In this document: piece after piece, positions 234-49,860 of the stretch
Layout: each line of letters opens with the position of its first letter
Numbering within the stretch: position 1 is the first letter of the stretch
Assembly (NCBI GenBank): GCA_018920315.1
Contig: JAHLMP010000005.1
Coordinates: 1-54,110, forward strand
Length of the DNA stretch: 54,110 nucleotides
Direction: 5' to 3'
Source: Candidatus Aenigmatarchaeota archaeon
Lineage (GTDB): Archaea > Aenigmatarchaeota > Aenigmatarchaeia > GW2011-AR5 > JAHLMP01
Made by a program: the position numbers and the translations under genes
Notes under the pieces: generated by a model
The model's database searches: none
What the model was told of the DNA's origin: nothing
Seen by the model: the letters and a program-made list of their open reading frames with translations, nothing else

Positions 234-914
234 TTGATGTTTAATTTTATTCTTTTTTCATTAATTTATAAAATTACATTGAGGATTAATGGAGGTGCTA
301 TTATAAAAATTGATAATATAAGTTATGAAATCGAAACTAAAAATTTGACATGGATTGATTTAAATCCAATGTATCTAGAAGAAGGTAATCACACTCTAGA
401 GATTTTAGCTAATGACAGTGCCGATATTGATGTAGTTTGGCTCTATTCCGTAGAAAGAAATGAAACCTTAGAAGATCTTTTTGCTTCTGAAGAAACTCCG
501 GCAGAGGTTTTGAATTATTCAAAAATCAACCCTACTCTCTGGAAAGTTCGGGTGAATGCCTCAAAGCCTTTTATGTTGAGCTTTGCTGAAAGCTATGATC
601 CTTTATGGGAAGCAAGGGTTTATAAAGATGGAAAGAAGGTTGAAGTCGCGAAGTCGATTCAATTATATGGAGTTATAAATGGCTTTTGGATTAATACCAC
701 TGGCGAGAATTTAGAAATAGTTATAAGATACACCCCTCAAGACTGGTTTGAAATGGGATTGGTCATTAGTGGAATTACTTTTGCTTTTTGCATTTTCTAT
801 TTGATTTATGATTGGAGAAAAAGCAAAGGTGATATATGGGCCAAGAGATTGGAAAAGAGCATTAATGAAAAAATGAGAAATTTGAAATTATTAAGAAAGA
901 TGCATAATTTTTAA
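234..914 (+). CDS. membrane-anchored protein with extracellular beta-rich domain and C-terminal TM helix
   Basis: ORF; WFEMGLVISGITFAFCIFYLIYDW TM segment; start uncertain. Confidence 0.6.
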   Translation: MMFNFILFSLIYKITLRINGGAIIKIDNISYEIETKNLTWIDLNPMYLEEGNHTLEILANDSADIDVVWLYSVERNETLEDLFASEETPAEVLNYSKINPTLWKVRVNASKPFMLSFAESYDPLWEARVYKDGKKVEVAKSIQLYGVINGFWINTTGENLEIVIRYTPQDWFEMGLVISGITFAFCIFYLIYDWRKSKGDIWAKRLEKSINEKMRNLKLLRKMHNF

Positions 915-14208: not shown

Positions 14209-14386
14209 GCGAGGGTAGCCAAGCGGTCAAAGGCGGTAGGCTCAAGACCTACTGGCTTAGTGCCTTCGCAGGTTCGAAGCGATTTTCATTTTTTTAAATT
14301 AATTCAATCTTAAGTTTTGAATTTGGAAAAAATAAAATAATATAATAAAAATTGATGTGAAAGTCGCGAAAATCCTGCCCCTCGCA
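14209..14386 (+). tRNA. tRNA-Leu(CAA) with ~94-nt intron in the T-loop (59/60)
   Basis: Exons GCGAGGGTAGCCAAGCGGTCAAAGGCGGTAGGCTCAAGACCTACTGGCTTAGTGCCTTCGCAGGTTCGAA + TCCTGCCCCTCGCA; long variable arm; intron ~14279-14372 with GCGATTTTC/GAAAGTCGC helix. Confidence 0.9.
14279..14372 (+). other. tRNA-Leu T-loop intron (boundaries may slide by 1)
   Basis: Helix GCGATTTTC/GAAAGTCGC plus TTC/GAA central helix. Confidence 0.8.
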
Positions 14387-14387
14387 T

Positions 14388-14491
14388 CTGTGCAGCGACG
14401 AAGCTGATAACCGGAAGGTCGGGAGTTCAAATCTCCCCTGCCCCACTATGGGGCGGTAGCTTAGCCAGGTTGGAGCGTCCGAGCTGCACAG
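14388..14491 (+). tRNA. circularly permuted tRNA-Ile(GAU): 3' half (14403-14445), linker CTAT (14446-14449), 5' half (14450-14481)
   Basis: Rejoined: GGGGCGGTAGCTTAGCCAGGTTGGAGCGTCCG + GCTGATAACCGGAAGGTCGGGAGTTCAAATCTCCCCTGCCCCA, a complete cloverleaf. Terminal helix CTGTGCAGC/GCTGCACAG, central helix CGTC/GACG, bulges CG^A and AA^G. Confidence 0.95.
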
Positions 14492-16347: not shown

Positions 16348-16442
16348 TGGGCTCGGCAGGATTTTCTAAAATGATTAAAAATATTCGAACCTGCGATCTT
16401 CGCCTTGTGAAAGCGACGTCATAACCACTAGACCACGAGCCC
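16348..16442 (-). tRNA. tRNA-Val(CAC) with ~22-nt T-loop intron
   Basis: GGGCTCGTGGTCTAGTGGTTATGACGTCGCTTTCACAAGGCGAAGATCGCAGGTTCGAA[TATTTTTAATCATTTTAGAAAA]TCCTGCCGAGCCCA. Confidence 0.9.
16362..16383 (-). other. tRNA-Val T-loop intron
   Basis: Removal restores the 7-nt T-loop TTCGAAT. Confidence 0.8.
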
Positions 16443-16499
16443 AATAATGAAAACATCTTTATCAAAAATTATTTGTTATACAATTTCTAAAATTTTATC

Positions 16500-27522: not shown

Positions 27523-27628
27523 CTTTATCTTATTATTGATAATTTAAAAATAAAGATTTTTGACTAATTTGAAATATTTATATCAAAATTTATGGGCCGG
27601 GAGAGATTCGAACTCTCGACCTCCAGTT

Positions 27629-27641
27629 TGCTTAGCTGTCT
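27629..27641 (-). other. tRNA-Ile(UAU) intron 3 (37/38, 13 nt)
   Basis: CTTA-TA^A-GACAGC-TAAG-CA^A-ACTGG. Confidence 0.82.
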
Positions 27642-27649
27642 TATAAGAC

Positions 27650-27669
27650 ATGCGCGCAAGCAAAAAGCT
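27650..27669 (-). other. tRNA-Ile(UAU) intron 2 (anticodon stem 29/30, 20 nt)
   Basis: GCGC-CA^A ... GCGC-AT^G. Confidence 0.8.
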
Positions 27670-27678
27670 TGGCGCTCT

Positions 27679-27697
27679 TTCTGGAGCTTCAAAACTT
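27679..27697 (-). other. tRNA-Ile(UAU) intron 1 (D-arm, 19 nt)
   Basis: CTGG-TT^A...CCAG-AA^A. Confidence 0.75.
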
Positions 27698-27755
27698 AAC
27701 CAGGCTAAGCTACCGGCCCAATTTATCTATTTTTATATCATAAATCAATAAAAAT

Positions 27756-45981: not shown

Positions 45982-46274
45982 GAAGGATGACTTGTAGTAG
46001 TCCACCTTTTGTTATACCATTCATCCTCTCAAAGAGGAATCATTAGATGGTAATGAATAATTTATCTAAGCGCCTTAAGGCTTGCACCGAGCATATGAGT
46101 CAGACCGTTTCACTTGGCCCTTCGCTTTTTGCGAAGTTAAAGAAGTATCATGAAATCAACTTCTAGCCAATATCGTTTCTGTTTCTGACTCCAAGCATCT
46201 CTGCTTTCATGCCTTTAAATGGTGGGTGGAGCTTCCTCCTCCTTAGAGGGAATATTCTCTACAAGTCATCTTTC
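45982..46274 (-). ncRNA. rnpB: RNase P RNA
   Basis: 16-bp P1 (GAAAGATGACTTGTAG/CTACAAGTCATCCTTC); GAGGAAGCTCCACCCACC (CR-I-like), GTGAAACGGTC, GGTGCAAG, TTAGATAAATTATT (CR-IV-like), ACAAAAGGTGGAC (CR-V-like, pairs with CCACC for P4). Confidence 0.8.
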
Positions 46275-49700: not shown

Positions 49701-49782
49701 TGGACCGGCTGGGATTCCCGAATTTTCGAACCCAGAGCCTCTTCCTTGCAAGGGAAGTGTCCTACCATTAGACGACCGGCCC
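49701..49782 (-). tRNA. tRNA-Ala(UGC) in the 16S-23S spacer with 10-nt T-loop insertion
   Basis: GGGCCGGTCGTCTAATGGTAGGACACTTCCCTTGCAAGGAAGAGGCTCTGGGTTCGAA[AATTCGGGAA]TCCCAGCCGGTCCA; G3:U70. Confidence 0.9.
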
Positions 49783-49860
49783 ATAGCTAAGTCTTCTCGC
49801 ATTAGCTGAGTAATAAAAGTTGAGGTGATCCAGCCGCACGTTCCCGTACGGCTACCTTGT

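What the first reader, a model, noticed from the sequence alone, without database searches (positions are those of the whole stretch)
14388..14491. Circularly permuted tRNA-Ile(GAU) gene
The 3' half (GCTGATAACCGGAAGGTCGGGAGTTCAAATCTCCCCTGCCCCA) precedes the 5' half (GGGGCGGTAGCTTAGCCAGGTTGGAGCGTCCG), separated by only CTAT. The outer ends pair (CTGTGCAGC/GCTGCACAG). With central helix CGTC/GACG and 3-nt bulges CG^A and AA^G they form a canonical BHB whose cleavage and ligation restores TCCGG-CTGATAA-CCGGA exactly. Permuted tRNAs are known from some algae and from a very few archaea (Thermofilum is the case I recall), so this is a rare gene architecture. Conventional linear tRNA models would miss it.
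Basis: partly seen in the sequence, partly recalled or inferred. Interest (0 to 1): 0.95.

Follow-up and report, generated by a model that had tools for sequence, protein, structure and literature searches.

The report
Circularly permuted isoleucine tRNA gene
In a tiny uncultured archaeon the only isoleucine (GAU) tRNA gene found is written back to front, second half before first, and must be cut and rejoined to work; four related genomes carry the same arrangement and cousins keep the normal order, one of them at the same chromosomal spot, so the origin of such scrambled genes can be studied.

Summary
Window 14403-14445 is the 3' half of tRNA-Ile(GAU) and 14450-14481 the 5' half, separated by CTAT and enclosed by a 9-bp leader/trailer helix and a textbook BHB splice motif. 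Joining the halves gives a full cloverleaf. Linear tRNA finders miss it. A grammar scan finds it once, and never in 300 shuffled windows. The interpretation also holds. The same permuted gene, cut at the same 30/31 junction, occurs in four other genomes of the class (Aenigmatarchaeota). The precursor structure shows 14 of 30 pairs with compensatory changes, including 8 of 11 in the leader/trailer helix. None of the five genomes has a detectable linear tRNA-Ile(GAU). Linear orthologs elsewhere in the class match across the junction, and some carry an ordinary intron at exactly 30/31 with the same BHB core. In one family the same locus (L30-NTPase-tRNA-Ile) holds a linear gene in one species and permuted genes in two others. 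The genome encodes EndA (two), RtcB and RNase P RNA. YrlA (a bacterial tRNA mimic) was tested and rejected. Archaeal permuted tRNAs were known only from Thermofilum (junction 59/60), so this is a new variant of a known kind. No RNA evidence was available.

The parts
14388..14396 (+). Leader strand of the outer helix (CTGTGCAGC)
   Evidence: Pairs 9/9 with 14483-14491; the outer helix is conserved through compensatory changes in homologues
14397..14400 (+). BHB central helix, leader side (GACG)
   Evidence: Pairs with CGTC 14476-14479; G-C/G-U and A-U/G-C changes in homologues
14401..14402 (+). Bulge nucleotides AA before the predicted cut AA^G
   Evidence: Three-nt bulge AAG, cut after the second nt; sequence
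14403..14445 (+). 3' half of tRNA-Ile(GAU), G31 to A73; no encoded CCA
   Evidence: Anticodon loop CTGATAA, T-arm, 3' acceptor strand; ARAGORN on joined sequence
14446..14449 (+). Intervening sequence CTAT joining A73 to G1; expected to be removed by tRNase Z and RNase P
   Evidence: Sequence; 2-5 nt in three homologues, 37 nt in G003
14450..14481 (+). 5' half of tRNA-Ile(GAU), G1 to G30
   Evidence: 5' acceptor strand pairs 7/7 with the 3' half; D-arm; 5' side of anticodon stem
14476..14479 (+). BHB central helix, exon side (CGTC, positions 25-28)
14480..14482 (+). Bulge CGA with predicted cut CG^A
   Evidence: Ligation CG^G recreates the sequence of linear genes in G125, G060, G001
14483..14491 (+). 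Trailer strand of the outer helix (GCTGCACAG)
14209..14386 (+). tRNA-Leu(CAA) gene with a 94-nt BHB intron at 59/60 in the T-loop (14279-14372); ends 1 nt before the permuted gene, probably co-transcribed with it
   Evidence: ARAGORN finds it only after excision of the intron; co-transcription is inferred
45987..46269 (-). Archaeal RNase P RNA, needed for 5' end maturation
   Evidence: Rfam RF00373, 98.8 bits

Best explanation
A functional, circularly permuted tRNA-Ile(GAU) gene, very likely the organism's only gene for this tRNA. Shown by sequence and comparison: the inverted order of the halves, the BHB motif at the outer ends, the exact reconstruction of the tRNA, and conservation. Inferred: the transcript runs on from the upstream tRNA-Leu. 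EndA (probably the epsilon2-type enzyme) cuts CG^A and AA^G. RtcB joins G30 to G31, closing the molecule into a circle in which A73 and G1 are bridged by CTAT. RNase P and tRNase Z remove CTAT, and CCA is added. The gene most likely derives from a linear tRNA-Ile with an intron at 30/31, whose splice motif became the leader and trailer.
For: Anatomy and chance control. Same permutation in G122 (AUK206, JAGGZO010000024.1), G123 (KUA_Bin01, JAGDWU010000017.1), G124 and G003. On the four-sequence alignment, 99.1% of precursor pair cells are paired, 14/30 pairs have changes on both sides against 5.1 in shuffles (0/500), and sliding the partners destroys it; the mature cloverleaf is 100% paired, with two double changes in the anticodon stem across the junction. 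The spliced product of G123 is identical over 55 nt to the linear gene of G125. No linear tRNA-Ile(GAU) in any of the five genomes. Linear genes with a 30/31 intron and the same BHB core: G110 CGTC-CG|A...GACG-AA|G, G113, G153, G078. Same locus with linear gene in G060 and permuted gene in G123 and G122. EndA, RtcB, RNase P RNA.
Against: No RNA data: neither the transcript, nor the circle, nor the mature tRNA has been seen. The assembly is about 86% complete, so a linear copy in a gap cannot be excluded. An alternative fold lacking the central helix is slightly better at 37 C. tRNase Z and the CCA-adding enzyme were not searched for.
Confidence: 0.95

Rival explanations
1. A YrlA-like noncoding Y RNA: a tRNA mimic whose tRNA-like module also reads in permuted order and is closed by a stem, never spliced, and bound by a Ro60 protein.
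For: Rfam YrlA (RF02553) gives sub-threshold matches to the tRNA-like module: 24.5 bits here, 38.5-41.5 in G122, G123, G124, gathering score 69. A contig of the viral collection that resembles permuted tRNA is YrlA-like.
Against: No TROVE/Ro60 gene (PF05731) in any of the five genomes. Most matches cover only model positions 23-87 of 114. A perfect anticodon arm with GAU and compensatory stem changes appears only after splicing. Ordinary tRNA-Ile occupies the same locus in a sister species. YrlA offers no reason for a conserved BHB.
Confidence: 0.02
2. A decayed or misassembled tRNA: tandem duplication followed by decay, or a collapsed repeat, with no function.
For: Metagenome assemblies; G124's copy runs into a contig end.
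Against: Five independent assemblies with the same junction, paired leader and trailer of different sequence, compensatory changes, and no linear copy found.
Confidence: 0.02
3. The halves act in trans as split tRNA transcripts rather than from one permuted transcript.
For: The same genome appears to have a trans-split initiator tRNA-Met, so trans-splicing may exist here.
Against: Only 4 nt separate the halves and the acceptor stem closes as a local hairpin; there is no room for a second promoter or terminator. A single transcript folds directly into the BHB.
Confidence: 0.01

Closest known systems
[quoted passage not shown]
   Same: Archaeal; 3' half first; BHB at the outer ends; short intervening sequence (7 and 1 nt); single-copy essential tRNA
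   Different: Junction 59/60 in the T-loop, additional canonical intron, encoded CCA, Thermoproteota. Here: junction 30/31 in the anticodon stem, no further intron, no encoded CCA, Aenigmatarchaeota, and conserved in five genomes
Permuted tRNA genes of Cyanidioschyzon merolae and green algae (PMC3978253)
   Same: Same gene order and BHB logic; circular intermediate shown by RT-PCR in algae
   Different: Eukaryotic; junctions 15/16, 20/21, 37/38, 50/51, 59/60; none at 30/31 and none for tRNA-Ile in that table
Linear archaeal tRNA-Ile(GAU) with an intron at 30/31 (G078, G110, G113, G153 of the same class)
   Same: Same cut sites and BHB core, same tRNA isotype
   Different: Normal order of halves; the intron ends are joined instead of the tRNA ends
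YrlA RNA (RF02553)
   Same: tRNA-like module read in permuted order, closed by a terminal stem
   Different: No Ro60 partner, below threshold, functional anticodon arm after splicing, BHB present
Split (trans-spliced) tRNAs of Nanoarchaeum equitans and Desulfurococcales
   Same: Halves joined at a BHB by EndA and ligase
   Different: Halves on one short transcript in reversed order here, not on separate transcripts

Membership tests
Circularly permuted tRNA gene | 3' half encoded upstream of 5' half on the same strand, with a short intervening sequence | tested here: met
   14403-14445, CTAT, 14450-14481
Circularly permuted tRNA gene | BHB motif formed by leader and trailer at the half junction | tested here: met
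   4-bp central helix, opposed 3-nt bulges, 9-bp outer helix; compensatory changes in homologues
Circularly permuted tRNA gene | Ligation yields a complete canonical tRNA | tested here: met
   ARAGORN tRNA-Ile(gat) for all five; identical over 55 nt to a linear gene for G123
Circularly permuted tRNA gene | Splicing machinery present | tested here: met
   EndA epsilon2-type (best PDB match 4fz2, E 1.3e-92) and alpha-type, RtcB, RNase P RNA
Circularly permuted tRNA gene | No linear gene that would make it dispensable | tested here: inconclusive
   None found in five genomes; own assembly only about 86% complete
Circularly permuted tRNA gene | Circular intermediate and mature, charged tRNA detected | not testable with these tools
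   No RNA data
YrlA (Y RNA-like) | Covariance-model score above gathering threshold | tested here: not met
   24.5 bits against 69; homologues 38.5-41.5
YrlA (Y RNA-like) | Ro60/TROVE partner in the genome | tested here: not met
   PF05731 absent in all five genomes; control rings in Deinobacterium
Split (trans-spliced) tRNA | Halves on separate transcripts | not testable with these tools
   4-nt spacing makes it implausible, but transcripts were not seen
Type IV permuted tRNA (Thermofilum type) | Junction at 59/60 | tested here: not met
   Junction is 30/31 in all five genes

The most novel reading that the evidence does not exclude
tRNA-Ile(GAU) genes in Aenigmatarchaeota switched in place, and more than once, between linear and permuted form, using the BHB of a 30/31 intron as a ready-made splice site (tandem duplication of an intron-bearing gene, then loss of the outer halves). 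Permuted tRNA genes would then be a by-product of BHB introns rather than relics of ancient half-genes.
Probability: 0.5. Interest if true: 0.85.

Novelty: new variant of a known kind. Interest (0 to 1): 0.78.

Why it matters
In the papers I could search, archaeal permuted tRNA genes were known from one species. Here is a second archaeal phylum, a junction position not in the published type list, an isotype not listed before, and conservation across families with compensatory evolution, which is strong non-experimental evidence of function. The set also holds what the older cases lacked: sister species with linear and permuted genes at one locus, and linear relatives with an intron at the same position. 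That makes the long debated origin of permuted tRNA genes (from introns, or as ancestral pieces) directly testable. It also warns that tRNA inventories of DPANN genomes are undercounted by linear gene finders.

Tried and rejected
Tandem-tRNA explanation: the relaxed class-wide pattern found mostly adjacent ordinary tRNAs; by eye only G000, G122, G123 and G124 have complementary acceptor strands within the span, and G104 (6/7 pairs) and G119 proved to be tandem genes on inspection. Bacterial hits of the genome-contig scan (L076, L077, L079, L080, L082, L083) are chance or tandem. Of 36 viral-contig hits most are tandem phage tRNAs and a few are not tRNA-like at all (no T-stem pairing); L177 is YrlA-like and L161 contains an ordinary tRNA-Ile. 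Weak model hits in G041, G042, G032, G059, G064, G073 and G079 are tandem linear tRNAs or parts of linear tRNAs. A tree of the 75-nt exons was not built because so little signal would not decide between transfer and repeated origin. Paper searches with DPANN or Aenigmarchaeota plus 'permuted' gave nothing on such a gene; the library lacks most subscription journals and bioRxiv.

Full report
What is there. The window is contig C6 of a 713-kb, 9-contig archaeal assembly, about 86% complete. Its relatives in the same class include two records titled Candidatus Aenigmatarchaeota. At 14388-14491 the order is leader CTGTGCAGC, GACG, AA, 3' half of tRNA-Ile(GAU), CTAT, 5' half, A, trailer GCTGCACAG. 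Numbered as a tRNA, the 5' half ends at G30 and the 3' half begins at G31, so the junction lies in the anticodon stem. GACG of the leader pairs with CGTC (positions 25-28 of the 5' half), and both bulges have three nucleotides, cut after the second: a textbook hBHBh' motif. ARAGORN calls the joined 75-mer tRNA-Ile(gat) and finds nothing in the native DNA.

More than chance. A scan requiring T-arm, acceptor pairing in inverted order, anticodon-stem pairing on joining, central helix and outer helix found this one place in 54 kb and none in 300 dinucleotide-shuffled windows. The BHB conformer is 3 kcal/mol above the free-energy minimum at 37 C and level with it at 85 C. The homologue in G003 reaches the BHB core without constraint.

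Conservation. A pattern scan of 84,980 species genomes returned, apart from chance and tandem hits in bacteria, only two Aenigmatarchaeota records with the same permuted gene; records of the window's own genome may be left out of that scan. In 156 genomes of the class, a pattern and then a covariance model gave five: G000, G122, G123, G124 and G003. All five are cut at 30/31. The intervening sequences are 4, 5, 2, 4 and 37 nt. On the alignment of the first four, 99.1% of precursor pair cells are paired, 14 of 30 pairs have changes on both sides (shuffles 5.1 +/- 1.8, 0 of 500 as high), and sliding the partners by 1-3 columns brings pairing to 29-52%. Eight of the eleven leader/trailer pairs changed on both sides, so sequence outside the mature tRNA is kept for its pairing. 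The mature cloverleaf is 100% paired, with two double changes in the anticodon stem whose partners lie on different halves.

Linear relatives. A pattern for linear tRNA-Ile(GAU) matched 60 of 156 class genomes (a few matches are not tRNA-Ile) and none of the five with the permuted gene. A looser pattern in those five found only unrelated places, one of them inside tRNA-Arg. The linear gene of G125 and the spliced product of G123 are identical over 55 nt across the junction. Four linear genes carry an intron exactly at 30/31. G110 reads CGTC-CG|ATAATAGACGAA|G, the same core as the permuted genes of G000 and G123; G113 has the CACC/GGTG core of G003; G153 and G078 have variants. In family f20 the order ribosomal protein L30 - NTPase_1 - tRNA-Ile is shared by G060 (linear), G123 (permuted) and G122 (permuted); G060 and G123 are in one genus. 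In the window's order, G003 (permuted) and G001 (linear) share an adjacent NAD kinase gene. Permuted genes are thus patchy (families f1, f3, f20). Whether by repeated origin, reversal or transfer is open; conversion in place at the L30 locus is the simplest reading there.

Mechanism. EndA is present as an epsilon2-type protein (best match ARMAN-2 4fz2, E 1.3e-92), a type reported to have broad specificity (PMC12397907), and as an alpha-type protein. RtcB is present, as is RNase P RNA in this window. Expected steps, inferred from known pathways (algal intermediates, PMC3978253): cutting at both bulges, ligation to a circle, removal of CTAT by RNase P and tRNase Z, CCA addition. The gene starts 1 nt after a tRNA-Leu(CAA) gene that has a 94-nt T-loop intron. 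The two are probably one transcript; no promoter was tested.

Rivals. YrlA is the most serious look-alike because its tRNA-like module is also permuted and stem-closed. Scores are far below the gathering threshold, and none of the five genomes has a Ro60 gene. Decay or misassembly is contradicted by recurrence and compensatory change.

What is known. In the held literature, archaeal permuted tRNAs are those of Thermofilum pendens, junction 59/60 (PMC3218864; the same source is cited in PMC4033280, PMC8450103, PMC12397907). Table 1 of PMC3978253 lists junctions 15/16, 20/21, 37/38, 50/51 and 59/60 and no tRNA-Ile. This case is therefore a member of the permuted-tRNA kind with a new junction, isotype and phylum. 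Later reports in journals not held cannot be excluded.

Noticed in passing
window 14209-14386 (+): tRNA-Leu(CAA) with a 94-nt BHB intron in the T-loop (59/60), missed by ARAGORN and by Rfam's default search; 1 nt upstream of the permuted gene.
   Followed up: yes
window 49709-49790 (-), 16386-16460 (-); L013, L014, L015, L074: T-loop introns at or near 59/60 also in tRNA-Ala(UGC) of the rRNA spacer (10 nt), Val(CAC), Gly(UCC), Lys(CUU), Arg(CCU), Asn(GUU). The Leu and Asn introns share their ends (GCGATTTTC...), as if introns had spread between tRNA genes.
   Followed up: partly
L072 (G000:C8:21000-22100), 5' half from 676 (+), 3' half 538-599 (-): Apparent trans-split initiator tRNA-Met: halves divergent on opposite strands, with complementary trailer and leader (GTCCGCC/GGCGGAC); the 5' half seems to hold a further small intron. 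Exact splice site ambiguous.
   Followed up: partly
L074:3136-3846 (-) and L075:6490-7479 (-): Two different tRNA-splicing endonuclease genes in one genome: an alpha-type and an epsilon2-type (ARMAN-like).
   Followed up: partly
window 27593-27719 (-): tRNA with a long interruption in the anticodon arm, possibly tRNA-Ile(UAU); the intron layout was not resolved.
   Followed up: partly
L104-L108, L110 (G008, G003, G019, G013, G020, G005): Two tRNA genes appear to abut with no or almost no spacer, e.g. ...GAGGCG directly followed by CGGGCCTGTAGCTCAG.
   Followed up: no
L177 48-156 (-), contig IMGVR_UViG_3300035684_000002: YrlA-like RNA (sub-threshold) with permuted tRNA-like module on a 74-kb contig of the viral collection.
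   Followed up: partly
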